DNA from: Carallia brachiata
Lineage: Eukaryota > Streptophyta > Magnoliopsida > Malpighiales > Rhizophoraceae
Direction of reading: 5' to 3'
NCBI GenBank assembly: GCA_021464245.1
Contig: JADCRB010000071.1
Span: 5,099,681 to 5,163,680, forward strand
DNA length: 64,000 nucleotides
Part shown: positions 6,641 to 57,570 of the stretch, one piece after another
Layout: each line of letters begins with the position of its first letter
Numbering within the stretch: position 1 is the stretch's first letter
Program-made: the position numbers and the translations under genes
Notes under the pieces: generated by a model
Seen by the model: only the letters and a program-made list of their open reading frames with translations
Database searches by the model: none
Told to the model about the DNA's origin: nothing

Positions 6641-7099
6641 AAAAATCAGGGGTTAGGAGCTCTCTCTCACAGTAGGCTTATGTTGGTTTAAGGATTGACA
6701 TTGATACATAGCCCTCAGTGTAAGAAAGGTTATGACACGAACTGTTCGATTATTCCATTAACGGTTTGGACTAATAGCCTTTGGAAATTTTGATATTTTG
6801 ATCTTGCGATCCAAATATCGCTAGGTTGGACCCGGTTTCTATTGTATCAAAGCAGAATTCTAGCGTTGACCCGTAAATACAGAGTTTTATTATAGAAAAA
6901 TCCAATGAGATTTTGGCTTTCGAGATTTTTTTTGGAAGCGAAAGTTTTGGGAGAGTAGATGAAAGTTGAAGAACGTGCATATGTGGAAGAGCTCGATCAA
7001 CTACCAAGAAGCAATAACAAAATGAAATTTGCTGCTCTTTTCTTGGAGTTAGCTAGGGAAGGCATCGGGTCAATCGCATAAACCCACCAGTCCTTTAGC

Positions 7100-8670
7100 T
7101 ACTTGGTATAAGGGGAGACCAATAGTGTCATATAAGGATGCTTTCCTTCATTCATCACTGGAGGCACAGTGGTGCAAGGAGACACTGGGATTATTAGAGG
7201 ATGAGTTTGAAAATGAGTGCGTGGATGATAGCAAAGATGAAGGTCCAAGGGACTGCCCAAAGGTGCCATTTTCAAGTATAGAGAAACTAGTGCTCAGGGA
7301 AGCATAGAAGAGAACTTTGATTATTAAGCTACTAGGACATAGTTTGGCCTATAATTTCATGCTATGGCGTCTAACTCAGCTTTAAGCTCCAAAGAGAAAA
7401 TTTGATTTGATAGATGTTGGTAACAACTTTTTCTTAGCCCAGTTTACCATGACAAAGGACTATGATTTTGTGCTTCGGGGCGGCTCGTGGGTGGTAGTCG
7501 GCCACTATTTCACAGTACGATGGTGGTCCCATGATTTTGATCCGGATAAGACTTCTATTGATCGCAGTAGCCATTTGGGTTCACTTATCACGCTTGCTAA
7601 TAGAATACTAAACCCCTGTTGCGCTTCAAAGGATTGGTAATAGATTAAGATGCCCACTCAAAGTAGACGAGACTACAGTGATTGTCTCTCACAAGAATTA
7701 TGCATAACTGTGCATAGAGATTGATCTCTCCCAACCGTTGGTGGCTCGTTATGAGATTGGGGGCAAAGTCAAACGAGTGGAGTATGAAGGTATCAATTTG
7801 TTTTGCTTTGATTATAGGAAGTATGGCCACTAAACTGGCCACTGTGGTAAAAAGGAACAGAGGGAGGGCAATAATGCTAAGGGGAAATCAAAAGGGGCAG
7901 GGAAGAGATTGGAGTTGCAGAAGGTGTATGGGCCGTGGATTTTGCTCCAACGATAGAATTGGCAGAAGAATGGCAACAAAACACAGGCCAGAGGTGCTCG
8001 ACTGGAGGGTTAAGGGGGTAATTGGAATAGGAGTGCCTATGGTTCTAGGTTTGATGTTCTTGAGGAGGAAGTAACTGGTAATGCCATCGGTAGTCATACG
8101 AGCGATCTAGGACAGGAGGACATTTTGGAGCCAACTCGAGAAGGAACATATGGAAAGCTAGTAATGGGCTCTAATAAAGGAAAAAGTAACAAACTAGGCG
8201 CACAAGAGTGCAAGGGCAAGAGGTGGTTGTAGCGCTTCAAGATCATACCCGCAACGTTAGTGGAACCTCTAAAACGTCGACACAAAATGACCTTCTTCCT
8301 AAGAATCTTTCGCATCGCCAACCGAGCTCTTCCACAGCTACAATGGCCCTACCACATGATTCAGCCCAAGGCATGACACAACAAGCTAACTGAAAGCATG
8401 AGAATGCGTTGGACATAGTGCGCCGTGCAACTAGGCTCGAATTAAGGGAAGGCTCTATTATGTCCGATAGGGAAACTCAGGAGCTTGGTAATACCATAGA
8501 CCTGGGGGAGCCCACTGAACCCAAGCCCCTAGACCCACTTTTGAATATAGAGTATGATGATTTTGTGGACTTTGCGTTGATGGTATCTCAAGTAGTAGAA
8601 ACTCTAATGCAGGTTGATGTAACTCACTCTTCTGTCGACCAAGGGAAAAATGCTATGGCCTCCTAGGAGG
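7100..8670 (+). pseudogene. LINE ORF1 remnant (DUF4283 gag-like protein)
   Basis: Broken frames encode segments typical of plant LINE ORF1. One at about 7407-7640 contains FVLRGGSWVVVGHYFTVRWW followed by HDFDPDKTSI, which is the DUF4283 signature. The region after it is Lys/Arg/Gly-rich and then acidic, like the variable C-terminal half of these proteins. Stops and shifts separate the pieces at about 7300, 7640 and 8075. ORF1 proteins of this family bind RNA and form the retrotransposition particle. This copy cannot make a full product. Confidence 0.75.
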
Positions 8671-8694
8671 TTTGGTTTTATACTTCACTCTTTC

Positions 8695-11600
8695 TATTAT
8701 GGACATCTTTGTCTGGAATGTATATGGTACCGCTAGTGCACATCTTTTGTGTTCTTTCCAGCTACTACTTTCGACCTAAAAACCTCTTATTGTAGCCTTG
8801 GTAGAGCAACGTCTAAGCAAATTGAAAGCTGACAGAGTGTGTTTAGACATCAGACTCTAGCATTTTGAGAGAAGAAGCTCGAGGGCATAGAGGGGGTATA
8901 TGAATCTTATGGGACCTTGCAAAGGTTAGAGTCACTCAGGTGCACAGTGGTAATCAATTCTTGCATACCTTAAAAAAAAAAGCAAGGCTATCCACCATAA
9001 TATTTTGCAGCGATTTATGCAAGCCCTTACTCAGGGCCATGCAGGGCCATGACGAAGATTTTGGAGTGCATTTAGCCAGATTAGTCGGTCTATGACTCGC
9101 CCTCGACTTCTTGTTGGTGACTTCAACTCTATCACGTCCCCAAAAAAGAAGTCAAGAGGTCGAGCTTGCCGTCTTTACTGATGGGCGACTTTTCTACACT
9201 GGATCAATGAGCAGGCTTTAATTGACCTTGGAGACAGTGGCCCTCATTTTACCTGGACGCAAGGTCGTACATGGCAAAATCGGGTGTCTCGTAGGCTTGA
9301 CAAAGGGTTATGTAACTTGGAATGGAGGACTATCCGGCCGGAAGCTTTAGTTTGACATTTATCTCAAATAAAATCCAATCACTATCCCATATTGATTAAA
9401 ATGTCTTCTCAATAGAATAATCTTCTGAAGGCTCGCCCGTTTCAGTTCTCGGGGCTTGGTTAACGCATGAAGGAAGGCTTCACCGAGTTAATCAAGAACT
9501 CGTGGAACAATTCTGCTTCGGTCTTGGAAGCACTGGAGGAGTTAACACCGGTCCTATTGGAGTGGAATAAGAGGGTATTTGGCAATATTTTCCATAAGAA
9601 ATAAAGACTATTGAATCGCATTCATGGATGCCAGAGAGCATTGGCTAGACATTATGTACCCTATCTGCCAGAGATAGATGACAAGCTATAGCAACAACTT
9701 GCACAAGTTTTGTAAAAGAAAGAGATATTTTGGTTCCAAAAGTCAAGGCCACAGAGGATAGTCGACGGAGATAGAAACGCAAAATAATTTCATGCTACCA
9801 CGATCGTTCGAAGGAAGCCAAATAAAATAGAAGCTCTTCGTGATAATAATGGCAATTGGGTTAGAGATGATGAGACACTAAGAATCCTGGCCAGGATTTT
9901 TTCCAAGGATTATATTCTGAAGAAAGCAACTATTGCCCTCCCTTTTCCTCTCCAAGGCAGATTTCGTGTTTTAACCTAAGGCAAAATGAACTAACTATTG
10001 AGGCGTTTCACTGAGGATGAGGTTCACTAACCAGTATGCTCAATGGACCCATATAAGGCACTCGGTGCTGATGGTTATCATGCGGTCTTCTACCAACGCT
10101 TTTGGAAGATTGTCAGGGATTTGGTGACAAAATCCACTGTATCCTTCTTTAACGGTGAAAATTTGCCTTCTGCTATGAATGAGACAGTAGTGCTAATTCT
10201 TAAGTGAAACAATCATGAGAAGCTAGTGGATTTTTGGCCCATAAGCTTGGGCAATATGACTTATAAGATACTCACTAAAGTAGTGGTCAATAGGCTAAAG
10301 CCATGTTTGTCAAATTAGATTGCTCCAACTCAATCCAACTTTGTGTCGAGGAGGCTAATCTCGGATAACATTGTGATCCTGCAGGAAGTGTTACATACTT
10401 TTAGAAATCTGAAGGGCTGCAAGGGATATATGGTTTATAAACTTGACATGGAGAAAGCCTATGATTGCTTGAGTTGGGATTTATCTTAGATATGCTGATG
10501 GAGTTATCGCTGTCAAACACTTGGATCAACTTGATAATGGATTCGGTCTTATCGGCTCACATAATGATATTATGGAATGGTGAGGCCATTGATCCCTTCC
10601 AACTATCGATAGGGACAAGGCAAGGAAATCTCCTCTCTCTTCACCTGCATGCGCTCTGTATGGAGTGTTTTTCTCATCTAATTGAAGAAGGATGTTCTCA
10701 AGACCATTAGAAGCAGATACATTTGTCTAAGGATGGACCAGAATTATCCCACCTTTTATTGCGGATGATGTAGTCCTTTTCGCTCAAGCTTTTTTCTGAG
10801 CAGGTGTAGGTTATTAAAAGGTACATGGAGGTATCTTTGCAAGATCAGGCTAAAGAGTGAGCTCTCAAAAGTCCAGAATCTTTGTCTCAAAGAACATAAG
10901 TAGAGGGAAGGTTATAGCGCTGTGCAGGGAAACAAGTCTCGGCGTCACAGACAACCTTGGAAAGTATTTGGGAATGCCAACGTTAAAGGCTAAGTCATTA
11001 ATCAAACCAATATAGAAATCCTAGAGAAGGTACAAAAGAAGCTCTCGTGTTGGAAAACCTCCCAACTATCTTTTGCAGGGCGTTTGATGTTAGTGAAAGT
11101 AGTTACATCAGCCATACCATCTTATGCAATACAGACGGCCTCCCTCCCTCTGGCAATATGTGATAAATTGGATCCATACAATGAGAACTTCCTTTGGAGG
11201 GACACAGATCAGCACAAGCATATTCATTTGATCAATTGGCTAACCATCTATCAACCGAAAGATGCAGGAGGGCTTGGTGTTAGGTAGGCTAAATTGGCTA
11301 ACTCGACAACAATGGCCAAATTGAATTGGCGCTTTGCAAAAGAACCTGGCAGCCTGTGGGTTAGAGCCCTTCAAAGGAAATATGGGGTTGGAGCAGCGGG
11401 CATAGGCCACAAATCTAAGGTGCATCTGCCACTTTGCGTGGAATGGGCCGAATTAGTGAATTTATATAGGAGAATATAGGTTGGTGGACAGAAAATTTGT
11501 CAATAATATAACAGTTATTATTATTTATGTAATAAAATTAATAAAATATGGTATAAAAAATTATTATATTATTTTTTGTTACACAAATAATTTACGTTAT

Positions 11601-12990
11601 TATACAAATATATTTTATAATTATATTATTGACAAAATTTTCTGTTCATTTCTTCTATGTCCTCCAACGTACGTTTTTCCTATAGAAACAGCTAATGTGG
11701 CGCATGGATGATAGTGAGACAACATGGTTTTGGCTAGACTGGTGGGTGGGGCCCATTCTTCTAGAAAATTATGCAGCACACCCATTGACGGAGGAGGAAC
11801 GTGCTCATTCTGTTGCTAGCTACTGGATTTTGAATAAAGGTTGGGATTGGCCTCAGCTGCGGGCTATACTACCACAGAGAATTTTGAATATGCTCGCACC
11901 TATAGCCTTGAGGCACACAATTGATAACCCATACATAATAGCATAGGGTTCTGTGAAGGATGGGAATTTCTCAGAAATCAGCCTGCAAGTCGCTCTTAGA
12001 GGCAACCCAGCGTCTTAGTGGAAGTCTCAATTCCAAAAAATTTGGGCAATCAAATGGCTGGAACGAGTGCGATGGCTTTTGTGGCAGGTAGGACATAACA
12101 GAATCATGCTAAACTATGAAAGATGGAGATGTGGTATGGCTCAGTCAAGTGGCTGCCAATTGTGCCAATCAATTGTGGAGAGAATACGTTACGCATGCTG
12201 AGAGATTGTCAGGTGGTTGCAACCTTATGGAGGAAATTGGTAAAGCCATCTCACCAGGGTACTTTCTTTTGTTGCTTCCAGCCGGATTGGATTGAGTATA
12301 ACCTTAAAGAGGAGTGTGGGAGTTCAAGCTACGATTGGAAATCTGTATTTGCAACGGCTTGCTGGTGGATATGGTAGTGGCGAAACAAACAAGTTTTTTC
12401 CTCATCGGGGCACGCAGTAAACTCTATTCTCAAGACGACCGAGGAATACTATCAGGAGAGACAAAGTGAGGCCCAAGAAACACGAGTGCCAATAACCCTT
12501 TGGGTGAGATGGAAGCCCCCTTTTTTAGAATAGATCAAAGTAAATACTGATGGCGCATCTCAGAACAATTGTAGCCTATCCAGTTCAAGTGCTGTGCTTC
12601 GAGATTGTAAGGAAAACTGGCTATGAGGTTTTGTTTAGATCAGGGTGAATGCTCCACCTTTGTAGTCGAGATATGGGGCATTTTGCAAGGATTCCAGGTA
12701 GCTTGACAATTTGGGATTTCGAAGGTTTGGTTGGAAATGGATTCACTTTATGCTATAGAAGCTATTCAAAAAGGGGTAGCTCCTAGCCACCCCCATGCAA
12801 ATTTGATCAATAGCTGTAGACTTGATTGTCCATATCTCCCACACTTACGGAGAAGGCAATCAGGTTGTTGATTGGTCAGCGGGACATACTTATGAACTGC
12901 AAGGGATAGAGTGGATTTGTATGGCTTTGTCATCCTCTCTCGGCTCCCAAAAGGTGTTTTGCCATTATTGTCCCAAGATGTCATAGGCAT
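8695..12990 (+). pseudogene. LINE ORF2 remnant (endonuclease, RT, zf-RVT, RNase H)
   Basis: Degenerate ORF2. The endonuclease begins near DIFVWNVYG (8702) and includes LVGDFNSI and SGPHFTWTQGRTWQNRVSRR (about 9110-9330). Reverse transcriptase pieces follow: GADGYHAVFYQRFWKIV (about 10070), LDMEKAYD (about 10440), QGNLLS (about 10620) and a FIADDVVLFAQ block holding the catalytic Asp pair (about 10755). A zf-RVT-like region lies near 12020-12290 and an RNase H start VNTDGA near 12540. Many in-frame stops show long decay. The order matches the intact family member at 39-43 kb. Confidence 0.8.
11488..11645. mobile_element. MITE-like inverted-repeat element nested in the LINE
   Basis: The ends are near-perfect inverted repeats of about 24 bases. 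The left end starts ACAGAAAATTTGTCAATAAT and the right end is the complement of ACAGAAAATTTTGTCAATAA. The 158-bp body is almost pure A/T and holds no gene. It separates LINE coding segments (before 11480 and after about 11695) that are contiguous in related elements, so it arrived after the LINE. No clear target duplication was identified, so the superfamily is unassigned. Confidence 0.75.
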
Positions 12991-24599: not shown

Positions 24600-24906
24600 T
24601 TACTCTCCTTTTCTTTTTGATTAAGAAAGAGCCCTATATGCATACATAGGGAGGGGGGCATCGACCACCGCCTGGGTGGTGAGGGGCACACCCCCACACC
24701 AACTGGGCTACTACCTAGCCATCTTCCTCTCTTTTTCTCTCTAACTATTTGGTGTTCGGCACCCATTTTCTAAAAATTATTAAGAATTTTTTGGTCGATC
24801 AAATGAAATTTCCAATCAGTACAACGCTATGTTGGCCGTTGGATCTCTTTTTCTAGTTTTATCTGGATCATCCACTTGACTATAAAGGTACAGGCGGGGA
24901 AGACCT

Positions 24907-24915
24907 GTAATATTA
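24907..24915 (-). other. Geminivirus-type nicking nonanucleotide, unit 1
   Basis: The + strand reads GTAATATTA, whose complement is TAATATTAC, the invariant geminivirus origin nonamer cut by Rep. It lies 117 bases upstream of the Rep start codon with the expected polarity. The surrounding bases form only a very short stem now (about 3 bp), so the hairpin has decayed. Confidence 0.75.
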
Positions 24916-24936
24916 AGAGGGCGTTCCCAAGAGAGG

Positions 24937-24961
24937 TATATAACTCACCCCAATCACCCCA
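24937..24961 (+). promoter_or_regulatory. Rep promoter TATA box and iteron-like repeats, unit 1
   Basis: TATATAA at 24937-24943 is followed by two direct repeats TCACCCCA (24945-24952 and 24954-24961). On the other strand these read TGGGGTGA. GGGG-containing iterons near the Rep TATA box are the usual Rep-binding sites in geminiviruses. Unit 2 keeps the TATA box (25414-25421) but its repeats are mutated to TCACTCCA and TCACCTCA. Confidence 0.6.
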
Positions 24962-25031
24962 AGGTTTTACAGTTTTGAGGAAATAGCTCTCTTAGGATGA
25001 GTTCACTATTCACTCTAGGGTGACTTCTAAA

Positions 25032-25198
25032 ATGCCAGAAATCTAAACTTTAAGCTTTCTACTAGAAATGTCTTCTTAGCATACTTTCATTGCCCAATTA
25101 GCAAAGAGGTTATCTTAGAACAACTAATTACCATTCTAAATCACAAACCCATTAAATATATCAAAGTTGCCTGTGAAATCCAACAAAATGGTGAATCT
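25032..25198 (+). pseudogene. Rep 5' fragment in unit 1
   Basis: This fragment begins at ATG 25032, shifts frame after a few codons, then reads NVFLAYFHCPISKEV, which corresponds to geminivirus Rep motif I (FLTYPxC). After that come VACEIQQNGE-type residues that lead into motif II. It stops at the duplication junction before the HLH motif. It cannot encode a nuclease. In viruses Rep nicks the origin and recruits host polymerase for rolling-circle replication. Confidence 0.75.
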
Positions 25199-25676
25199 AT
25201 CTTCCTCTCCTTTTCTCTCTAATTATTTGGTGTTTAGCAGCAATTTTCTAAAAATTATTAAGAATTTTTTGGTCAATCAAATGAAATTTTCTATCAGTAC
25301 AGCGATATGTTGGCCGTTGGATCTCTCTTTCTAGTTTTATCTAGATCATCCATTTGACTATAAAGGTATAAGTGGGAAAGCCCTGTAATATTAAAAGGGT
25401 GTCCCCAAAAAAGTTATATAACTCACTCCAGTCACCTCAAGGTTTTATAATTTTGAGGACAGAGCTCTTTTAGGATGAGTTCACTGTTCATTTTAGGGTG
25501 ACTTCTAAAATGTCAAAAATTGAAACTTTAAGCCTTCTACTAAAAATGTCTTCATAGCATACCTTCATTGCCCAATTAGCAAAGAAGTTGTCTTAAAACA
25601 ACTAATTGTCATTCTAAATCACAAACCCATTAAATATATCAGAGTTGCCTGTGAAATCCACCAAGATGGTGAACCC
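25199..25676 (+). repeat. Tandem viral unit 2 (origin + Rep 5' end)
   Basis: Second copy of the 478-bp unit, continuous with more Rep sequence to about 25980. Differences from unit 1 are mostly transitions, which fits long residence and methylation-driven decay after duplication. Confidence 0.85.
25385..25393 (-). other. Geminivirus-type nicking nonanucleotide, unit 2
   Basis: The + strand reads GTAATATTA, so the complement is TAATATTAC, exactly 478 bases from the unit 1 site. The nonamer is intact in both units although flanking bases differ. Confidence 0.75.
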
Positions 25677-25980
25677 CATTTACACGTTGTACTGCAATTT
25701 AGTTCAAAATTTCAAATCCAGAATTGCACAATGTTTGATTGGTCGAAGTAAGAAATTTCATGCATTATCATCCAAATATACAAGCAGCACGCAATGTGGC
25801 AGCCATAAAAGAGTATATTTCAAAATATGACGACTTTGTAGAACAGTGGGAATATTTCGAAGCATCTAGTAGTTGATGCTCAAAGGGCAACATCGCAAGG
25901 CAAGTATTTCAAACTGGCAGTTTTTCAAAAGCACAGCAAGTACTACAAGAACAGGACGCACATGACACTTAGGCAGAATA
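25510..25980 (+). pseudogene. Geminivirus Rep relic, N-terminal HUH domain (unit 2)
   Basis: The start codon at 25510 is out of frame with what follows. From about 25542 the frame reads NVFIAYLHCPISKE (motif I), KYIRVACEIHQDGEPHLHV (motif II; the two His codons are 25677-25679 and 25683-25685) and QFSSKFQIQN. Near 25740-25757 the frame changes, and the next frame reads HPNIQAARN, then KEYISKYDDF, where the Tyr codon 25814-25816 is the motif III nucleophile position. It continues through FQTGSFSKAQQVLQEQ, similar to the Rep oligomerisation region, with a TGA near 25873. No helicase (Walker) part is seen. The order of motifs I-II-III is as in active Reps, but at least three breaks make it a pseudogene. 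The family is recognised by motif. Confidence 0.85.
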
Positions 25981-26142
25981 AGTGTGCCGTCAGTTTGTTT
26001 ACAAAATTCGGATGAGCCAAATCAATTTGTGTTGGCTCTAAAGCAGCTCTGAACTCAAGGGTTCTGGCTATTAGATCCTCCATGAGCAAAGACTTGGTAA
26101 AGTACAAAGTTCAATTCCATCCAGACAGCCGGTGTCAATAAA

Positions 26143-26370
26143 GGAGGTCACCCTAGAGTAAATAATAAGCTCACCCCAAAAGTTCTCCCTTCAAAACTCT
26201 AAAACCTTAGAGTAACTAGGGTGAGTTATACACATCTCTCAGGGAGGTTTTCTTAAAATTACAGGCCTCTTTGTTGGTACCTTTATAGCTGCATGGACAG
26301 TCCAGGTTAAAGTTAAAGTTAAACGAGAAGAAGAGATCTGATGGCTAACGCAGTATCGTACGATGTGGAC
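26143..26370 (-). repeat. Inverted third copy of the viral intergenic region
   Basis: GTCACCCTAGAGTAAAT, AAACTCTAAAACCTTAGAG, AGGGTGAGTTATACA and TTACAGGCCTC run in the same order as the reverse complement of 24880-25025, at roughly 75% identity. The nonamer position reads TAAAATTAC at 26254-26262, one base off TAATATTAC. In this orientation the virion-sense direction points right, toward the coat-protein relic, as in a real geminivirus. Confidence 0.75.
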
Positions 26371-26789
26371 TTATCTACAAAGACACGTGGCGACATCAGA
26401 CATTTTTTTAAATTTAAATTCTAAAATTACCCCATGGGGTTAACTTAAAGTCAAAGTCAATTGGATATAGCTATCATGTGGGACACCCACATTTGCTTGT
26501 CGGCTACGTGGGAGATACAATTCAAATTGTGGGTTCCACAACTGATTATTAAAACAAAATATTCCATTATTAGTATTTTGCCGCTTTCAGTTCAAAGTTA
26601 TAGTCTACTGAGAAGAAAAAAGGGCCCACTAGCCGTATAATCGAATATTTTCTACATAAGAAAATACGGCGGGGCAACAATTACTGTATTCATTCTTCTC
26701 TTGTAGCTTCTACGTCACAGGTACACCATGTGCCGAACCTCTCTACCCAAACTGTACCGTATTGGGAGTTACGTCAATTCTCAGTGGAT

Positions 26790-27352
26790 GTTCCCAAGTT
26801 CTAAGTTCAAGAATACTGGTGACATTGGCCTCATGAGTGGAGTTAGCCTTGGCAATCACTAATCCGGGCAACACAGTGCGAAGACATGACGACCTTCGTC
26901 GGTATATGCGGCAGAGTCAATGTGGAACCTGGGAACACTTTGACGGACATCAACGAGTATTCGGGTTCACGATATACGTGGGCATTTATGTGGATCATTC
27001 ATGATCGATATCCTCACGGTGCTAGGCCGACCATGAGGGATATGTTCAATGGAATTCCTACTGACGCCGACACGTGGAAGCGGAGTTTCACTAACCGATG
27101 CCGTTTTAGGGTTTTTACCTCAAAAACTGTCAAACTGTTGGTGGGTCCACCAAACCCCACGGAATACATTATTCAATTGTCAGTCCCGATCAAAATGTTA
27201 CGTAAGTGCGAGTGTATACCCAATACAAGGATCTCCCCGTCAGTGACATCTCATGTATTGAGACCGGAGCCATATACTCTGTAGGAGGTTATTATGCTGG
27301 CGATCAGTGCTGTTTTTCTGGGCAATTTAATGTATATTTTAATTACTGTTAA
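26790..27352 (+). pseudogene. Geminivirus coat-protein relic
   Basis: Three frame segments align in order with geminivirus coat proteins. The first, NTGDIGLMSGVSLG (about 26811), matches the TGxVxxxSDVxxG region. Next is a 132-codon open frame, 26886-27284, with FVGICGRVNV, FMWIIHDRYPHG, DMFNGI and NRCRFRVF. A final segment in another frame (about 27238 to TAA 27350-27352) has IETGAIYSV and ends FNVYFNYC, like the terminal beta strand of these capsids. Breaks lie near 26853 and 27235. Coat protein forms the twinned capsid and carries nuclear import signals in viruses; this copy is inert. The pattern looks closer to mastrevirus or citlodavirus types than to begomoviruses, but that is a judgement by eye. 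Confidence 0.72.
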
Positions 27353-29026
27353 TCATCATTATATATATATATATATATATATAAGAGTTTGTTTTAACTA
27401 TGTTTGCTCCGCACAATAATTTAATGTAATAATTCTTATTCATTGTACAAAATTAAAACAGCACAATTTTTTTTAATAATTTTGTAGAGTGTTATTTTTA
27501 TTTTTTTATTTTTTAACTAAAAAAAGATTGTAGCACATGCACCCTTCATTAATAATGGTAAAGTATTATAGCTTATTCATATTGAAATACAGAAAGAGTA
27601 ATAATTTGTATTATGAAATATCTTAATTTTTATTATTAAAAAAGAATTAACTAATTTTTTAATATTATTAAATTAAAAAAATAAAAATTAAATTATATAT
27701 TTAACAATTAAGATGTTTTATAATATAAGTTTTGAAAATATATATGGTGATATATTTCTTGTGTGTTGAACGTGGTTTGTCTCTACCTATCTACTAATCC
27801 TTGTCAGGCCCCCCTTCGTAGTCACCACTTGTTACCTTCTAGACAAAAAGAAGAAGCAATCGTGGCAGTCTGCTCATCCACATCTTATAATCTGTTGGCA
27901 AATAATTTTCTGTTCTTCAATTAGAGAAATTTTTTTTATTGTATTTATATGTATTTTGTTATATAATTATAATTATTTTTTTATGTAATTAAAATAATAA
28001 AAGTTGATATAAAAATATTATTATTTTTTTATTTTATATTTATTCTTTTTTATTGTATAAAAAATATTTGTAATTATAAAAAAAATATGTGTATGTAATA
28101 AAAAAAATTATTTTGCCGTATAATGGAACAGCAATTAATACTTATGTGCATATGTAAATAGTGGATCACCAGCTTCCCAAATATTTATTGTCAGCGAAAG
28201 AGACGTCACAGAGAGGATACATCCTGCAAATAGAGACCACTCCGCAGAAATGTTCTTGCATGGATACACGTGTACGCGCGCAAGGATCAAAACTCAAAAG
28301 ACAACAAAGTATAGTTGAGATGATGAAAATTAAAGGGCCCTGCATAATGAATGTCCATCCATTTGGTAAAACTCCTCCTTCATAAGATAAGATACGAAAA
28401 CAGATAAGATAATGTCTGAATTTAATAAGTTATCCGTAGTTGGCACGCAATGTTCATCGAATTAAACGTTAAAACAATCACAAGAGTTTGGTGTAGTCCT
28501 GTCTTGCCATTGCTTTGTACACTTCCTGAAGATGCCTGTGTATTTCAATTTTTAAATCCTCTCGAAAACTTAACCCAAAAAAAGCTCATATTAAAGAAAA
28601 AAAAAAAAAGCCGGGATGGTCATCTTAAATTATATAGCCGAAAGGTCCATGTTATCCTTTATGCTGCAGCTGACCAGCAATTTTAGAGCGGGCGACTTTT
28701 GTCTTTTCAGAAAGAAACAAAAATAATTTTACAAAATATTTGGTAAAATTTTTAAATAAAATCATCAGATAAACTGATAAATATTAATTAAAAATACTGT
28801 GACTATTTTAACCCTACATAAATAATATTGTGCAACTCTTATCTGCTTTCAGCAGAGGAAAAACCAAAACAAAAAAAAAAAAAAATTGGGCGTAAGACAT
28901 ATTTTTTATTTTTATTGATGAATGCAAAAAAACTTCTTTTTTTTTTTTTTTCTACTAGTAATACTACAAAAGGAGAGTTGAAAGCTAAAAAAAAAAAAAA
29001 AGAAAAAAAGACACAAGATGTTGCTG
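27353..29026. other. AT-rich intergenic DNA
   Basis: No supported gene. It includes an (AT)n run at 27361-27383 and several A and T homopolymers. Short frames at 28161-28385 and 28450-28686 have no recognisable domain. The right part is the 3' flank of the OXS3-like gene, with TTTATT blocks near 28900 that could serve as minus-strand poly(A) signals. Confidence 0.5.
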
Positions 29027-37020: not shown

Positions 37021-37369
37021 AACGAAAGTGGGTACTCTCCTTCTGGATGAGTTTTCTCTGCTCCCTTGAGGTGGCAGTGTTGTAGGGCCATGGTGCCCTT
37101 TTCTTTCCCTTGCTTGATTCCTTTTCTTTCCTTTTGTATTTCTTCTTATCTTTGCCAGGTCGTGATCTCCTAAAAGTGCTATCTGGTCTCTTTTCCTTAT
37201 TGTGTCCATGTGTCTCCCTGCTCGCTCTCTTCATTTACCCATCTTTGTCCCCTTACTACTTTCCTTTTGTTCACACTACCCGACCAAATTTCCCTCTCCT
37301 AGCCCTATTTAATCTTGTGGCAGGTGGTTCTGTCTACCTTTGGCAACCCAATTTAAGGACGCCTTAATT

Positions 37370-39002
37370 ATGGATACCGAACAAAGAGTTAATGAACTGG
37401 TTCAACTCACTGGGGCACTTGGCTGGCAGGAACCCGTTTTGGAGTTGGAGGCTAATTCTAAGGAAGCGCAGAAAGTGGCCAAATCCGTGCTTGTGGGTAA
37501 GATTTTTTCTGTAAAGCAGTTTAGATCTACAGTGGTACGGTCGATTCTTAAACGGATTTGGAATATTACGGGAGAACTTGAGGTACAGTCATTAAAGGTG
37601 AATCTGTTTCTGCTTGCGTTTAGCGAGGAAACCGAAAGGCGTCGTGTGTTAAATGGCATACCATGGAATATCTCCAACCAGCCCTTCATAGTTAAGGAAT
37701 GGCCTTCACACTTAGCTCTTGAAGAGTTGGATCTCTTACATTCACCAATGTGGCTCCAAGTTCATGGCCTTTCTTTAGAACAAATGACCCGTGAGAATGC
37801 GAATAGGATTGGGAATTTATTTAGTGGGTTAATGGAAGTTGATTATACGCTGGATAATGTGTTGAATTGGCACAGCTATATGCGGCTATTGGTCCGCGTG
37901 AAAGTTGAAGATCCTTTGCGGACGGGATTTTATACCACCAAAGCCGATGGAAGCAAGTGTTGGATCCGTTTCTTCTACGAAAAACTCCCAGAATTTTGTT
38001 TTCTCTGTGGTAGAATGGGTCATACAGACAAGAAGTGTCTCTTTCAGCATTCGGAAGAAGGACGACAAGGGCGTTATGGCAATTGGCTTCGAGCGGACCA
38101 ACTGTTCCCTCGAAAATTGGGAGTGGGTGCTATCCCGGCCGATATAGAGCAGAGTCCGGCCACACCGTTTCAGCGCAGAGAGAGGCGAGGTCGGCAAAGG
38201 AAGTGGTTCCAGCTGTGGGGACAGAGAGCACCACTCCCAATGGCCTTGAACACGTTAAATGTCCTGCAGCCTCAGACTGTGTTTCAGAATTTGCTTTTCA
38301 GACTGAGCCACAGCAGGCGTTGGGGGGTGCTCGAGATAGTGAAGGTGGGAGTGGCTCCAAAGGTCAAACCTTGTCCCATCAAAAATCTACTATGCCCAAG
38401 CTGCAAATTGGCGGCAAGAGAGAACAAAAAATTAAAGAAATTGCTGATCAGGCTATATCTCTCGATAGGGACCAGAATCTGGGATCCCCTACTCCCAAGG
38501 TGTCCCATCCAATGGTGAACTCTTCTACGAGCTTAGGTGATGTCATCACACAGCACACCCTTCAAATAGGAAACGGGCCTTTCCCCTCCATCTTAACTCC
38601 AATCCAGCTAAAAAAGCTAAAGGCCCAAACCACTTGCATGCCAAAACTGACCAAGCTTCTTTTCCTGCAGACCCAACCTCTTCCCCACCCAGAGACATAT
38701 GTGCCCAAATGGACTGGGAGTCAGGACTGACCCCCATAGACAACCTTCAAGGCCCATCAAACCTTACTGGCTTTCCCCTGACAATAAAAACCCACCCAAA
38801 AAAAAAAGGAGTACGTATGAAGTCCCTAGCCCGTAACTTTCCTCAGTCTCCCTCTTCTGTTATTCTGCCTTCTCCTTCTACGGATGTTAAAAACATGGAA
38901 GTGGAGCAATGTCCTTCATTGGACCAGCTCGGGAATGCATCTGACCTCTCTAAAGACAACATGGCGGTGGTGGCTGGCCTACAGCCACACGCACGCCAAT
39001 GA
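37370..39002 (+). CDS. LINE ORF1: gag-like DUF4283/zinc-knuckle protein, two frame breaks
   Basis: ATG 37370 opens MDTEQRVNELVQ. The first about 270 codons stay in one frame and hold DUF4283 (WNISNQPFIVKEWPSH and LHSPMWLQVHGLSLEQ). A CCHC zinc knuckle CFLCGRMGHTDKKC follows at residues 210-223. The frame then changes near 38150-38210 into a Ser/Thr/Gly-rich tail and again near 38640-38720. The last frame ends HARQ at TGA 39000-39002, overlapping ATG 38999 of ORF2 (ATGA). ORF1 proteins bind element RNA and escort it during retrotransposition. With both shifts the protein is truncated or altered. The conserved N-terminal half is intact. Confidence 0.8.
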
Positions 39003-42000
39003 TCATCTTGGCTTGGAACTGTCGGGGACTTGGGCAATCCCTGACAGTTAGAGCTCTTAGGGAGCTCATCCGCCGGCACTGCCCGGATATCGTTTTTTTG
39101 ATGGAGACGAAGCAGAGAAGGAATTATGTACAAAAATGGCAAAGAAGAATGGGCTTTGATTATGCTGATTTTGTCGACCCAGATGGTAGAGCTGGAGGTT
39201 TGTCTATTTGGTGGAGGGACTATGGGAGTTTGCAAATTCTTAGCAAATCACAAAATTATTTCAATATTAAGTGGAACGATCCTCAGGGCAACCAACCTTG
39301 GCATATTTCTTGTGTCTATGGTAACCCTTATAAAGATCAGCTTGGCAGAGTATGGCATGAGCTTAGCAGTCATAAACCACCAGCGGGGGTCCCTTGGATG
39401 TGTATCGGGGATTTTAATGCTGTCCTATCCAGCGTTGACAAAAGGGGCAAAAGGCCGGTGGATAACTATAAACGGAGATTGTTCCAGGATTTTTTAAGAC
39501 TGTAATCTAGTAGACTTGGAGTTTAGAGGGCCACCTTTCACTTGGGTGAATGGACAGGTTGGACAGGGCATGGTTGAGGAAAGGTTGGATAGGGCGGTAT
39601 CGAATTTAGAATGGCAGCTTGATTGTCCACGCGCTCTTTTGTTCCATGAGCAGCGGATAGGCTCTGATCATCGTCCGCTAATCCTTTATTCAGAGTACAA
39701 GGCTAGAAGAGCTAAGAAGGGTTTTCGTTTTGAATCTCGATGGACAGAATTTGCTGATTGCACCTCAACCATTCTCGAAGCATGGAGGGAGGAGGTTGTT
39801 GGCTCACATAGTTTCAGGCTGGCCAGAAAACTCCGTAATTGTAGTTTTTTTCTCAAGAAATGGAGCGCTAGTAAAGTGGGCAATTCCAAGCGCAAAATTG
39901 AGGTTCTGCAGCGTGACCTTTTAGCAGTTCAGTCACAGTCTTCAACAAAACAAACACAGGCACAAGAGCGTCAAATCATTGGCAAACTAGCTGAGGCTTG
40001 GAAGATGGAAGAGATGTACTGGCAACAAAAGGCTAGAATTAATTGGCTTTCGGCGGGTGACAAGAACACGAGGTTTTTTCATGCCATGACCATACGCCGC
40101 AAACAAAGGAACAATATTGTGAGGCTTCGAACTAGCCAAGGATGGGTTGAAGACAGTGAGAAGGTGGCAGATGAGGTGCTGCATTTTTTCAAGGAATTAT
40201 ATCAGGGGGGTGCCGTTGGGAATATGGATGCTATTCTCGAGGTTGTGCCTCGCCTGCTTACAGAAGAGATGAATGCTAGCCTTTGTGCGGACGTTTGTGA
40301 TACTGAGATTGAAACTGCAGTGTTTGACATGGGCCCTTTGAAGGCACCAGGGCCAGATGGTTTCTCAGGACTATTCTATCAAAAGTATTGGAATATAGTG
40401 GGCCCCGATGTGCAAAAAATGGTGAAGGCTTTTTTCTCTTCTGGCTACCTGCTAAAAGAACTCAACCGTACCCATCTTGCGTTGATACCAAAAGTGCCTA
40501 GTCCAATAGAGATCAACAACTATAGGCCAATCAGCTTGTGCAATTTTGTCTACAAGATAATTTCAAAGATACTAGTTAATCGACTAAAGCCTTGGCTTCC
40601 ATCTATTGTCTCCCCATGCCAAACGGCCTTTGTTCCCGGTCGATACATTCAAGATAATATAGTGATTGCACATGAAGCTTTTCATGGATTGAAGCAAATC
40701 CGGGGCAGAACGGGGCATATGGCAATAAAGCTTGATATGCAGAAGGCTTATGATAAAGTTGAATGGTCATTCCTGCAAAGTGTGCTTGTGAGACTGGGTT
40801 TTCGGGAATGGTGGATTGCTCGGATTATGCAGTGTGTATCTACAGTGAGTTATCAGATTTTGATCAATGGTCAAACTACTGCCCCTTTTTATCCGACGCG
40901 TGGCTTAAGGCAAGGTGACCCGCTATCTCCATACCTATTTATTCTTGTGTCAGATGTACTTGCACGACTCATAGATAAAGCAGTGATGGATGGTGGATTG
41001 CGTGGCTTTAAAATAAAGCCGCGATGCCCGGTTGTTTCCCACATCCTGTTTGCTGATGATACCTTGCTTTTTGGGAGGGCCACACTTGAGGAAACTACAA
41101 CATTGATGAATATTCTGGATTCCTATTGTATTGCCTCAGGGCAAGTCGTAAACCTTCATAAGTCAGGCATAGTATTTAGCCGAAATACCCAACCAGAAGC
41201 TCAAACATCTATACTGCAGCTCACAGGTATGAAGGCTCTCGCTGGGGGTGACAGGTATTTGGGCCTTCCATCATCTTATGGGAGGTCAAAAAGTGAGGCT
41301 CTCCGTTTTATTTCTGAAAGGATTGAACGTAAACTTCAATCATGGAAGCAACAGACCCTGTCTCTAGCAGGAAGAGAAGTATTAATCAAATCAGTGGTGC
41401 AGGCAATTCCCTCATATGCCATGATGGTATTTAAATTTCCTCTGTGTGTTTGTCAAAAAATCAACCAACTGATAGCTAATTTTTGGTGGGGACAACGTGG
41501 AGAAGAGTTCAAAATACACTGGGAGAGCTGGAAAACCTTATCTTTATCGAAAGCACAAGGTGGGTTAGGTTTTCGAGATCTCCCAGCTTTTAATTTGGCA
41601 TTGCTGGCAAAGCAAAGTTGGCGCATTCTTCAGGATCCCGATGCTTTATGGGTGCGAGTGTTGCGCGGAATCTATTTTCCGTCTGGCAACTTTCTCACTG
41701 CAAAACTAGGCCATCGGCCGTCATGGTGCTGGAATAGTCTCTTACAGGGAAGAAATCTATTGGAGCGTGGCTTGCGATGGGAGGTAGGGAATGGCAGGCA
41801 CATAAACGTATGGGAGGATCCTTGGCTTCCTGATATGCCAAATTTTCGAATCCACTCTGTTAGGCCCCCAGCAACAGACATTTTGGTAGTAGGCGATCTT
41901 ATTCATGGGGGGCTTCATGAATGGAATATGGTTAAAATAAAGCAGCTCTTCAATCTGGAAGAGGTGCATGCAATTGAGAAGCTTCAGTTGAGTCATGAGG

Positions 42001-43127
42001 GGGGTCAGGACAAATTAATCTGGAATTTTGACAGAACTGGTGACTATTCTGTGCGGCAGGGATATCACAAGGCCTTGGAGATATTGCATAGCCCTTCAGC
42101 TAGACCAAGCCAGGGGCAAACGTATGATTCAAGTGTGTGGAGGCAGGTTTGGTCATTGGAGGTTCATCCCAAAGTCAAACAATTCCTGCGTAGAGCTTTG
42201 AGAGATGCTCTTCCAACCCAACAAAATCTCTTAAAGAGAGGCGTGGGGGAGACTGAGGTTTGCCAAATCTGCGGGACGGTGGCTGAAACTACGGTGCATG
42301 TATTATTGGGCTGTGAGCATGCTCGGGCAACATGGTTTGCAAGTCTTGGTTATTATCCAAGGACAGAATCTGTGGAGTCTTTTACTGACTGGTGGGTTGG
42401 CATTGCTAGAGAGATGTGCGCACAAAAGACCCCAGAATTGTTAAATTTTATAGCTTTGCTCTGCTGGAACATCTGGAAATCTAGGAGCTCCTTTTGCATG
42501 GAGGGAAGCAAGATTCAGCCTGTACAGACTCTGGAAAGGGCCTACCAAAACTGGAACGAGACCCCCTTACTTCATTTGCCTGTGGCGCTGCATGTGCCTA
42601 GGCCTGGGATTTTCACCTCAACTGTTAGACATTGGGTGAGGCCCCCTGAAGATGTGGTGAAGTTGAACTGTGATGCTGCTTTTAAAGGGAAGAATGAGTG
42701 GTCAGGAATGGCAGTAGTGTGCAGAAATAGCCAAGGGCATGTCTTGGATGGTGGAATTATGAGACGGAAGGTTACTTCAGCACTTGTTGGTGAGGCTCTC
42801 GCTTTGCGTTTGGCCACAAGGATTGCCACCGAGGCCAAATGGCACAAAGTGATTTTGGAGACTGATTGTGAAACTCTCTTCAGGGTGGTTCAAGCAACGA
42901 AGGGTGCTGGCTTACTAGAGATCAACCAGCTAGTTAAAGACATCAAGGTGTGGTTCAACCGACATCCACAGGCACAATTGAGTTTGGTCAGAAGAGAGGC
43001 AAACCAGGTTGTGGACTGGGTGGCAAAGAATGCACGAGACCATCAGTGCTCTTTTGATTGGATATCACACCCCCCTTCCCAATTGTCTAATTTACTGGCT
43101 GCTGATTTATGTACCCAGATGCACTGA
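38999..43127 (+). CDS. LINE ORF2: endonuclease-reverse transcriptase-RNase H, one frame break
   Basis: ATG 38999 starts MIILAWNCRGLGQ, the apurinic-type endonuclease, with VFLMETKQ and CIGDFNAVLSS. That frame stops at about 39503. The remaining 1203 codons, in the next frame from about 39500 to TGA 43125-43127, begin with the end of the endonuclease (PPFTWVNGQ, SDHRPLIL). RT follows, with APGPDGFSG, YRPISLCN, LDMQKAYD and GLRQGDPLSPYLF. The catalytic FADD is at 41049-41060. A zf-RVT segment (VCQICG) and RNase H (LNCDAAF, GEALALRL, ETDCETL and a final Asp in VVDWVAKNA) follow. One extra base in the TTTTTTAA region near 39496 explains the break. All RT and RNase H acidic residues I looked for are present. 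Confidence 0.9.
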
Positions 43128-49699: not shown

Positions 49700-50245
49700 G
49701 GTTTAAAACTCATCTTTAAAATCCAAATCCAGATTTAGGGGTAAACCACAAACCCCGACTCAGACTCCAAACTCAAATCTTGATTCCAGTCCAAAGTCTA
49801 AATCTAGATTCATGAGGCAAAATGTGGAGCCAAATTCAAAACCCCAAACCCAATTCTAGCCAAAAGTACAAATTCGGACCCAAATCCAAAATCTAAATTC
49901 AAACTCGGGTCAAAGCCCAAAACCAAATCTCAGTTCAGATCCAAATCCCCAAAACCCAGCAAATCCAAACTCGGGTTGAAAGCTCCAAACCCAAATTTTA
50001 GCCCAAAATCCAAATCCAAACTTGGGGGCAGACCCCAAAGCCGAATCCAAATTTCAATTCAAAATCCAAGCCCAAATTCAAACCCGGGCCAAAAGTACAA
50101 ACTCAAACTCCAGCTTAAAACCCAAATTCAGATCCAAATCCAAACCCAGGTTCAAACTCAGACTCAAAGGCCAAATCCAAATTCCGACGTAAATTCCAAA
50201 TCTAAACTTAGGGGCAAACCCCAAACACTGACTCAAAGCCCAAAT
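49700..50245 (+). repeat. C/A-rich low-complexity tract (Asn/Pro/Lys/Ser/Gln codons)
   Basis: Reiterated CCAAATCCAAA-type words with almost no G or T over more than 500 bases. One frame (49976-50257) is open and encodes PNSNPGQKYKLK-like residues only. The composition is so skewed that an open frame is expected by chance. It was probably produced by replication slippage or reverse-transcriptase template switching. Confidence 0.7.
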
Positions 50246-50257
50246 CAGCAACACTGA

Positions 50258-54954: not shown

Positions 54955-57007
54955 TCAAACAACAGAAGATGCTGTACGGCGAAGATCAGCTACCACGCTG
55001 CTGATTTTCTCACCATGCTGCCCGCCTTTGAAACTTGCATACCTTCCAGGCTTTGGCAGAAACAGCGAGGAGAGCATTTGCTCCAAAGTCTGCACTGAAT
55101 ATTTTGCGTACTTACCGGAATATCCATCTTGCTCAACCAAGGGCCCATAATTCTGCATATAGCTTCGGTAAACAGGAACGACAGCCTGCACTATCTGTTG
55201 ACATGTCTTCTCCCTGAGATCTCTCTCTGGGACAATCATGCTCGACTGCTCCTTGTACATTTCATCAAAAGCTTCATTGAAAGTTTTAAGCCTTTTCTTG
55301 ACAAGGTCACGAGCAGTGGCACGTCCGCCTGAGAAAAGAATCAGACCTTCCCGACTTAAATGACCTGGTAGCTTCCCCCAACTATCTCTCAAGAAGATTG
55401 CAGCATAATTGTTCTTTTCCTGTTCATGCTTTCTTAACCAAGAGTCCCCCAAAAGATCCCCAAGTTTTGTTCCCTTCAAATGCTTGTACAAATGGTAGTG
55501 GTTGTTCATAGCAAAAAGGTTGGATGAGATTGGATCTTCATAAGCCTTTGTCCATGTCTTCAAATTGAGCTCAATAGCTTTGACAACGTTCAAAATCTCA
55601 TTAACAAGCAGCTTCTCCTGAAATTTTTCATGCTTCCAACTACGATGGATGACCAGAACCTGGGTCAATATGGGCTTATAATCATTCCCAAGCAGCTTGT
55701 TGCAATAATCTGTAATAAAGCTCACTAGTCTTGGGACACCAGCATCAGCAGGAGGTGGGATCTGCCTCTGCAACTCTACCTGGACCAGAAGTTCCCAGAA
55801 AATCTCAGATGCTCCATCGATGACCCTCTTAATGAGATCCCTTGTGAGGTTTTGGATCTCAGCGCAGGCTGCTCCACCAAAAAGCCTGTTGAAATCCAGT
55901 CTTAATTTGTTCAGAGATGCAAATATATCCAACAGCTTCAAAAGCTTGATGGGATCTTTTTTTGCTTTCTGTAACAGTTTTCCCAAACTGAAGAAATGCA
56001 AGAATGCCTGCCTGTGCAGCTATTTGGGCAAAGCATCCCATCCACACATCCAATCCAATCCTCTCAAAAACATCATTGCAGAGATTGTACTCTGCTTCAA
56101 GCAAATGCTTCACTGCAAACTCCAAATGCTTACCCCACTGAGCTATATATCCCTCTATGCTCTGCACGTCATTGAATTCAGCTATCGAGATCTCAAGGTA
56201 ATCCAAGTCAAGTGCCTGCAAACTAGCTCTAACATTTGAACTACGAACATCAACATAGATCAATATACACCTTTCAAGCCTATTATTAGCAATCAAGCGA
56301 CCAAGAATCGCTTGCAACTTTTGGATGACAGTTACAGGCAAAGGTGACGGTGCGATGACGGCTTGCTCACTGAGTGACGCAGGTGATGCCATTGGAAGTG
56401 GCACACTATGCTCCATCAAAAGCCGCCGAAACTCCCCTTCCAATTTGTCCAAAGCAGCATCTAGAAGCCCACCATCGAGGTGAGCTCTTTTATTGTCAGC
56501 TTGTGATTCTCTAAGACTCTCCAATGACTTCTTCAGATTTGAAAGATACCGCCCATCTGCCACTGCATTATCCTCCATGTACTCCAATATATCCTCCAAC
56601 CACTGAATTGCCAATCCACAATTATCCCCTAAAAATTTCAAAGCCTCCTCCAGGCGCTTGAGAACAGACAAATAACCGGGCAGATCATTACGCGGATCCG
56701 ATAAGAGAGACTTTTCTAGCCCATGAACAGCATCAAAAACCTTAAGCACCGCAGCAGCAGGCCCCACAGCACGATTAATGTGACCTCCAACGGCATCTAA
56801 AGCATCCTTGTCGGCACGAATAGGGCGGACAGCAGCCTCTAGAGAAGGCAATCGTTGTTTGATCTCATCCAATCTAGGCCCAGCCTTCCCAAGAGCAAGC
56901 CCCAGGGCTTTTGACTTCTCTAAGCTAAGCTTCAATGACTTATTAGCAGCTATCAAATGCTGAATCATATTATCATAATTTCCATTCCTGTTCACCGATT
57001 CAGCCAT
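54955..57007 (-). CDS. EXO70G1: Exocyst subunit EXO70 (G-clade-like), one frameshift
   Basis: A single-exon gene of about 683 codons from ATG 57007 to TGA 54955. The N-terminal part holds SLKLSLEKSKALGLALGKAG and VRPIRADKDALDAVGGHINR, and the Exo70 C-terminal domain includes FGGAACAEIQNLTRDLIKRV, NLFAMNNHYHLYKHLKGTKL, LLGDSWLRKHEQ and LREKTCQQIVQAVVPVYRSY. EXO70 tethers secretory vesicles to the plasma membrane as part of the exocyst. Length, lack of coding introns and the residues fit the EXO70G clade better than A1, though databases often label such genes EXO70A1-like. A T7 run (55957-55963; A7 on the coding strand) holds one base more than the frame allows, just after VTESKK. The two frames overlap there and both halves are otherwise intact. 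It is an assembly indel or a recent loss of function. Confidence 0.85.
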
Positions 57008-57570
57008 TGGAATATCAGAGACCTCTAATTATTTTCAATTCCTTTCACTCAAATTAAACAGACCGACAGACAGACGACAAGACCAAGTTCAAGAGCTATA
57101 CAGTCAAGAATCAAGATTCCATTTTTGCAAATGGGTAATCCTCGGATTCATCGAAGAAGTTTCTGGAATTAATCTGGACTGATGTAAACTATAAATCTTC
57201 CCTTTTCCTTAATATTTTCACCAAAACGTCACCAAACCAATTATACACCAACTAAAGTAAACACAAACTTACCCTCAACCCACAATTACCCGAGTGAAGT
57301 TCAATTTTCTATTTTAAGGCAGAAGAAACTCACTTGGGCTTTGAACTCGAGAGGGCGAGTTGACCCAGCGAGTTGAGCGAGCTGGTAACTGCGTTAAGTA
57401 AGGGAAAAAGAAAAGTGGAAGAAAAAAATAAAAAAAGAGGTGGGGGAAATTTGAGTAGAATCTGGGTTCAATTTAAAGAGAAGGAAAGAGAAACCCTAAA
57501 AATTCGAGGGAGAGGAGAGAGAAATACAACTTTACAACTCTTTTTGCATTGTCCGAAGTGGAGTGGTCAT
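57008..57570 (-). promoter_or_regulatory. EXO70 5' UTR with candidate leader intron, and promoter
   Basis: Reading on the minus strand, AA/GTGAGTTT at 57333 is a good donor and GACTGTATAG at 57096 a reasonable acceptor. This gives a roughly 238-base T-rich leader intron. A GA/CT-rich tract and a purine-rich block (about 57400-57530) lie upstream. The leader intron suggests a native gene and not a processed copy. Confidence 0.45.

What the first reader, a model, noticed from the sequence alone, without database searches (positions are those of the whole stretch)
24721..27352. Endogenous geminivirus-like locus with origin, Rep and coat-protein relics
Rep motif I (IAYLHC), motif II (GEPHLHVVLQF) and motif III (KEYISK) occur in order downstream of the complement of the TAATATTAC nonamer, a TATA box and iteron-like repeats. 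A coat-protein relic follows 0.8 kb later. The spacing and polarity of origin to Rep are those of a geminivirus. Few plant lineages have described geminivirus integrations, and those I know of are mostly Rep-only. One that keeps both Rep and coat protein is unusual. It is heavily mutated and inactive.
Basis: partly seen in the sequence, partly recalled or inferred. Interest (0 to 1): 0.92.

Follow-up and report, generated by a model that had tools for sequence, protein, structure and literature searches.

The report
Broken geminivirus fossil in plant chromosome
A plant chromosome carries broken, duplicated and partly inverted fragments of an old geminivirus, including pieces of its replication and coat genes; this is a further example of a kind of viral fossil already known from other plants.

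Summary
Window 24721-27352 is a decayed endogenous geminivirus. Three Rep pieces match Pfam Gemini_AL1 (E 1.1e-9, 3.3e-20, 6.9e-7); a 145-codon piece matches Gemini_coat weakly (E 3.9e-5, under the curated cut-off). In the 337.5-Mb assembly all 3 Rep matches at E 0.001 or better, and the one coat candidate scored, fall here.

The left half is a 478-bp tandem duplication of origin plus Rep start, 423 of 475 identical. The coat piece, on Rep's strand, follows a third, inverted origin copy, so this is a rearranged multimer, not one collinear genome. A second relic, on contig C110, has a coat 3' end 63 nt from an origin. Copies A and B diverged without visible purifying selection and with a C-to-T bias.

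Rep with other geminivirus genes nearby is common among described loci (1,601 of 2,165, mostly tea; PMC7758297), and a macadamia locus has a similar build (PMC8626973). Host and virus genus stay unknown. A new member of a known kind.

The parts
24721..25195 (+). Tandem copy A: virion-side leader, origin (virion sense on the - strand), Rep promoter and Rep start
   Evidence: 423/475 identical to copy B with no gap; Tandem Repeats Finder period 478
24907..24915 (-). Nonamer TAATATTAC of origin A
   Evidence: exact match; aligned in three origin copies
25049..25198 (+). Truncated first Rep copy, motif I region
   Evidence: PF00799 E 1.1e-9, profile 1-50 of 113
25199..25673 (+). Tandem copy B, which continues into the longer Rep piece
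   Evidence: K2P 0.12 from copy A
25385..25393 (-). Nonamer TAATATTAC of origin B
   Evidence: exact match
25527..25742 (+). Second Rep copy, motifs I and II
   Evidence: PF00799 E 3.3e-20, profile 1-72; solved Rep domain 7vg8_A E 1.1e-15
25757..25855 (+). Rep motif III region, in another reading frame
   Evidence: PF00799 E 6.9e-7, profile 78-110
25877..25972 (+). Possible continuation into the Rep oligomerization region (resemblance by eye, from recall)
   Evidence: no Pfam match; low confidence
26144..26288 (+). Third origin copy C, inverted (virion sense on the + strand); nonamer-like TAAAATTAC at 26254
   Evidence: 74% over 148 columns to copy A, opposite strand;
26707..26862 (+). Open frame just upstream of the main coat piece, possibly the coat N-terminal part
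   Evidence: position only; no Pfam match and no meaningful PDB match
26847..27284 (+). Main coat-protein piece (145 codons, open)
   Evidence: PF00844 E 3.9e-5 over 26982-27158, under the curated cut-off; the one Gemini_coat candidate scored in the genome
27206..27352 (+). Probable coat C-terminal piece in another reading frame, ending at a stop
   Evidence: no Pfam match; 27243-27359 is 84.6% identical over 117 nt to the second locus, where it lies beside an origin fragment

Best explanation
This is an endogenous geminivirus (EGV): replicating DNA of an extinct or unsampled geminivirus was joined into a plant chromosome by illegitimate recombination, probably as a multimeric or already rearranged molecule, because origin copies of both polarities are present. 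Shown: Rep and coat pieces, three origin copies in two orientations, broken frames, a tandem duplication and a second relic locus. Inferred: the A/B duplication arose after integration, roughly 4-12 million years ago (K2P 0.12, with recalled plant neutral rates of 5e-9 to 1.5e-8 per site per year), and the DNA has decayed as methylated, silenced DNA with no protein function. As it stands it should not replicate: the longest open Rep piece at the locus is 75 codons.
For: PF00799 matches in three separate pieces and a PF00844 match. The best solved-structure matches are chains named Replication-associated protein or Rep protein. All 3 Gemini_AL1 matches at E 0.001 or better (9 candidates scored; the places of the others are not shown) and the one Gemini_coat candidate scored lie within 2.6 kb in 337.5 Mb. 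Origin regions align over about 148 columns, A and B in one orientation and C in the other. Between the Rep parts of A and B dN is 0.10 and dS 0.034, and differences at codon positions 1/2/3 are 6/4/2 of 12. Neither Rep copy has a methionine codon before motif I in its open frame. C/G sites of A that read T/A in B: 5 of 12 CG, 6 of 17 CHG, 18 of 143 CHH. Of 16 origin changes unique to B, 13 are C>T or G>A. Of the 9.9 kb fetched at the second locus, only the viral pieces align to the window.
Against: The coat match is under Pfam's curated cut-off; solved structures gave nothing for that piece, the DNA-supported last piece has no Pfam match, and the single-sequence fold is useless (pLDDT 33). 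The longest Rep piece also matches another Rep family, PF23343, under its cut-off (22.6 of 27.8 bits). The origin stem-loops do not clearly fold better than shuffles. There is no indel between A and B among 52 substitutions, which is odd for long neutral decay and would fit two viral variants joined before integration; 12 differences in the Rep part are few for a dN/dS statement. No exact direct repeat of 5 or more bases was found at the assumed edges, and the right edge is not sharp. No match to the Rep central or helicase domain in the pieces scanned; the genome-wide search for the central domain did not complete.
Confidence: 0.95

Rival explanations
1. The relic comes from a genomovirus or another geminivirus-like CRESS-DNA virus rather than a true geminivirus.
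For: Rep domains of related families can share PF00799-type motifs (recalled); the Rep piece also weakly matches PF23343, and the coat match is weak; no phylogeny could be made because the viral collection gave no relatives.
Against: Rep pieces score over the Gemini_AL1 cut-off, and their best solved matches are Rep domains that I recall as geminiviral; the one viral coat family that any scanned piece matches is Gemini_coat; an exact TAATATTAC lies upstream of Rep with the geminivirus polarity. No genomovirus reference was compared directly.
Confidence: 0.04
2. The copies A, B and C are different viral variants that were concatenated before integration, rather than post-integration duplicates (a rival about the order of events, not about the identity).
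For: No indels in 475 aligned bases between A and B despite 52 substitutions; A and C differ by about 26%; geminiviruses form multimeric and recombinant DNA (recalled).
Against: dN exceeds dS between A and B on few differences, unlike divergence inside a replicating virus; both Rep copies lack an in-frame start upstream; the changes unique to B are mostly C>T or G>A. For C against A this reading remains open and may well be right.
Confidence: 0.25
3. Misassembly or exogenous virus contamination in the assembly.
For: Inverted and tandem repeats are typical assembly trouble spots.
Against: The locus lies 5.1 Mb into a contig, with plant-type genes or retroelements on both sides; the pieces are decayed and diverged; a second locus with related pieces lies in other DNA.
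Confidence: 0.01

Closest known systems
Endogenous geminiviral element on Macadamia integrifolia pseudochromosome 9 (PMC8626973; passages, and section 5)
   Same: One longer and further partial Rep copies, partial duplication, coat (AV1) genes in opposite directions, which implies inversion, a TAATATTAC origin, broken frames
   Different: Macadamia keeps recognisable AC2, AC3 and AC4 pieces and a 3,440-bp unit; here no geminivirus gene beyond Rep and coat was recognised. The sequences themselves were not compared
EGVs of the 134-genome survey, tea (Camellia) above all (PMC7758297; parts 1-5 of 7 read)
   Same: Rep with domains of other geminivirus genes nearby (1,601 of 2,165 extended loci), truncated frames, high cytosine methylation in tea
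   Different: Tea has over 900 Rep loci per genome and some transcribed Rep genes; here two relic loci were found, one with Rep
EGV1 and EGV2 of yams (PMC5014472; passages)
   Same: Partial tandem repeat with two partial Rep genes and a TAATATTAC intergenic region (EGV1)
   Different: In yams no coat homologue was detected, and at least one Rep kept its coding potential for long after integration (as told in PMC7758297); here a coat piece is present and Rep is broken
Nicotiana geminivirus-related DNA (GRD; as cited in PMC7758297; fragment content recalled)
   Same: Repeated geminivirus fragments with Rep, methylated
   Different: 116 Rep loci in N. tabacum; here one duplication and one further relic

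Membership tests
Geminiviridae (source virus) | HUH Rep catalytic domain of geminivirus type with motifs I-III | tested here: met
   PF00799 E 3.3e-20 and 6.9e-7 in two pieces, over the cut-off; 7vg8_A E 1.1e-15
Geminiviridae (source virus) | Origin nonamer TAATATTAC upstream of Rep | tested here: met
   exact at 24907 and 25385, one mismatch at 26254; not significant by itself in such AT-rich DNA
Geminiviridae (source virus) | Stem-loop carrying the nonamer | tested here: inconclusive
   z-scores -1.5, -1.3, +0.3 on decayed copies
Geminiviridae (source virus) | Geminivirus coat protein gene | tested here: inconclusive
   PF00844 E 3.9e-5, but 23.7 bits against a cut-off of 33.9; the one candidate scored in the genome, E 0.0186
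Geminiviridae (source virus) | Rep and coat genes diverge from one intergenic origin | tested here: inconclusive
   each gene has the right polarity to its nearest origin copy, but the locus as a whole is rearranged
Geminiviridae (source virus) | Rep central and helicase domain | tested here: inconclusive
   no match in the pieces scanned downstream of motif III; the genome-wide PF08283 search did not complete
Geminiviridae (source virus) | Twinned particles, circular ssDNA genome | not testable with these tools
   relic DNA only
Endogenous geminiviral sequence (EGV) | Integrated in a host chromosome with host DNA on both sides | tested here: met
   window lies at C136:5099681-5163680; LINE and EXO70 on the right, PTH2 match on the left
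Endogenous geminiviral sequence (EGV) | Partial, defective viral genome | tested here: met
   the longer Rep copy is split over two frames, the first is truncated, and the coat pieces lie in at least two frames
Genomoviridae | Best match to genomovirus Rep and coat | not tested
   no genomovirus reference was compared; only the Pfam and PDB libraries as a whole

The most novel reading that the evidence does not exclude
What integrated was not a normal genome but an already rearranged replicating molecule in which Rep and coat genes lay on the same strand, each beside its own origin, one of them inverted. In the window the order is origin(-), Rep(+), origin(-), Rep(+), origin(+), coat(+). At C110:1660058-1660324 a coat 3' end (+) lies 63 nt before an origin(-), which is the junction that a circle or head-to-tail repeat of the window's order would give. 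Two loci agreeing in this way could also be coincidence, since only two relative polarities exist, or two pieces of one parent array.
Probability: 0.12. Interest if true: 0.45.

Novelty: new member of a known kind. Interest (0 to 1): 0.25.

Why it matters
It adds one locus pair to the fossil record of geminiviruses and records a coat sequence that scores low against the known coat family, so it may come from an unsampled lineage. The internal duplicate gives a rough minimum age. If the host belongs to an order without described EGVs, it would widen the known host range of ancient geminiviruses; the host could not be named here.

Tried and rejected
Tried without result: protein database searches with the coat piece (2 candidates, none at E 1 or better) and the Rep piece (no candidate; the tool's length limits keep full-length Reps out); viral contig scans with the Rep piece, the coat piece and a solved Rep domain (15, 1 and 23 stretches matched patterns, none confirmed), so no phylogeny was possible; solved-structure searches with three coat-region pieces. 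In one search the 48-residue last piece gave a row at E 0.00023 (8pjr_A, SAKe6AC-LB, 14 residues, no stretch passing on its own) and further rows of like names and kelch proteins, which I judge chance. Pfam rows (CLIP E 0.094, Syntaxin-5_N E 0.2) are also judged chance. Structure prediction of the coat piece (pLDDT 33) was not used further. Rfam over the window at gathering cut-offs gave nothing. No exact direct repeat of 5-11 bases at the assumed edges. Naming the host from assembly size in papers failed (0 papers; 653 papers held at least 3 of 6 terms, 20 were listed, none of the 20 with the size; the rest were not seen).

Rejected: the nonamer as evidence on its own; the reading that origin, Rep and coat are one collinear genome; the statement that relics with more than Rep are rare, at least counted by locus.

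Not reached: genome-wide searches with PF08283 and with both flanks, because the search machine did not answer.

Full report
What is there. The window lies at contig C136:5099681-5163680 of a 337.5-Mb assembly in 164 contigs. It holds plant-type genes and retroelements: EXO70 at 54955-57028 on the minus strand (Exo70_C E 1.3e-86; EXO70A1 4rl5_A E 4e-10), part of a PTH2-type peptidyl-tRNA hydrolase gene near 1596-2177 (E 1.4e-6), and a LINE at 37313-43127. Between them, at 24721-27352, lie the viral pieces.

Rep. Three separate open pieces match Pfam Gemini_AL1 over its cut-off: 25031-25222 (E 1.1e-9, profile positions 1-50), 25524-25751 (3.3e-20, 1-72) and 25739-25876 (6.9e-7, 78-110); the second also matches PF23343 under its cut-off. 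Motifs I and II share a frame; motif III is in another. The solved structures matched by the second piece are 7vg8_A (E 1.1e-15), 1l2m_A (4.2e-12), four more sequences at 1.6e-8 to 1.7e-8, all named Rep or Replication-associated protein, and one weak row (8e55_A, 0.0095). From recall, 1l2m is a begomovirus Rep and the 6q1m group a mastrevirus Rep, so the piece looks nearer to begomovirus-type Reps; this is no genus test.

Coat. The open piece 26847-27284 matches Gemini_coat over 26982-27158 with E 3.9e-5 but 23.7 bits, under the curated 33.9. It is the one Gemini_coat candidate that the whole-genome search scored (1 of 1; 21.6 bits, E 0.0186 for one genome). All three Gemini_AL1 matches at E 0.001 or better (9 candidates scored; the places of the others are not shown) are in the same locus. 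If the coat match were a chance hit anywhere in 337.5 Mb, the odds of its landing within a few kb of these Rep matches would be of the order of 1e-5 (my arithmetic). The last piece, 27206-27352, is not matched by Pfam. Its DNA (27243-27359) recurs at 84.6% over 117 nt at a second locus beside an origin fragment, which ties it to the virus. Over the last 22 codons before the stop the two loci differ by 4 synonymous and 6 nonsynonymous codons. Results against: nothing meaningful in the PDB for coat pieces at E up to 10 (the best row, E 0.00023 over 14 residues of a protein named SAKe6AC-LB, I judge chance), and a useless single-sequence fold.

24721-25195 (A) and 25199-25673 (B) are a tandem duplication, 423 of 475 identical without gaps (period 478). 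Each holds an origin whose virion strand is the minus strand, followed by Rep on the plus strand, as in a geminivirus. A third origin copy, C, at 26144-26288, aligns to A at 74% over 148 columns on the opposite strand. The coat piece follows C in the virion sense of C. So each gene has correct polarity to its nearest origin, but the two halves are inverted relative to each other: a rearranged, multimer-like insertion. The alignment of the three origin regions shows conserved blocks round the nonamer and at CTTTATAG.

Decay. K2P between A and B is 0.12. In the Rep part dN is 0.10 and dS 0.034, with differences at codon positions 1, 2, 3 of 6, 4, 2 in 49 codons; there is no sign of purifying selection, though 12 differences are few. 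Of A's C/G sites, 5 of 12 in CG, 6 of 17 in CHG and 18 of 143 in CHH read T/A in B; the reverse is 0 of 4, 4 of 19 and 8 of 134. With C as third sequence, 6 changes are unique to A, 16 to B (13 of them C>T or G>A), 45 to C, and 2 sites differ in all three. This fits loss of methylated cytosines in silenced DNA, more in B than in A; methylation itself was not measured. The lack of indels between A and B is the main oddity and keeps the rival (two variants joined before integration) alive.

Second locus. The whole-genome DNA search with 24721-26320 gave the locus itself, its internal inverted matches and one other place, C110:1660237-1660324 (82%). The search with 26321-27352 gave itself and C110:1660058-1660166 (85%). 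In L010 the coat 3' end and the origin fragment are 63 nt apart, coat on plus, virion sense of the origin on minus. Nothing else of the 9.9 kb of L010 aligns to the window at E 1e-4, so it is a separate insertion or a moved fragment. The DNA search skips simple and very common words, so further short relics may exist.

Comparison with what is known. The survey of 134 plant genomes found Rep homologues in 17 genomes (one later set aside), at 2,359 loci, of which 1,885 are in two tea varieties; among 2,165 extended loci, 1,601 were associated with domains of other geminivirus genes, while Amborella and sunflower, most notably, had Rep alone (PMC7758297; parts 1-5 of 7 read). The macadamia locus has one complete and two partial Reps, a partial duplication and two coat (AV1) genes in opposite directions, all broken (PMC8626973; passages and section 5). 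Yam EGV1 is a partial tandem repeat with two partial Rep genes, without a detected coat homologue (PMC5014472, passages). Strawberries have none by Rep search (PMC11359110, passages). Of the other papers I saw only the listings. The present locus is therefore a new member of a known kind. What could make it more is the host lineage and the virus genus, neither of which could be settled here.

Noticed in passing
L010 4559-4825 (G000:C110:1660058-1660324): Second geminivirus relic in the same genome: coat 3' end and origin fragment 63 nt apart, the origin's virion sense opposite to the coat strand, in other host DNA.
   Followed up: yes
window 37313-43127: Long, largely open plant LINE (DUF4283, zinc knuckle, endonuclease, reverse transcriptase, RNase H-like), with a 1209-codon open frame; by inference young.
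   Followed up: partly
window 7053-12377: Decayed pieces that resemble the same kind of LINE by eye (only 7718-8074 was scanned, without a Pfam match).
   Followed up: no
window 49808-50257: Open frame rich in Pro, Asn, Lys and Ser repeats in a stretch with strong strand skew at 48-52 kb; nature unknown.
   Followed up: no
window 25199-25673 against 24721-25195: In the origin region copy B carries more unique changes than adjacent copy A (16 against 6), 13 of B's 16 being C>T or G>A; why neighbours differ so is unexplained.
   Followed up: partly
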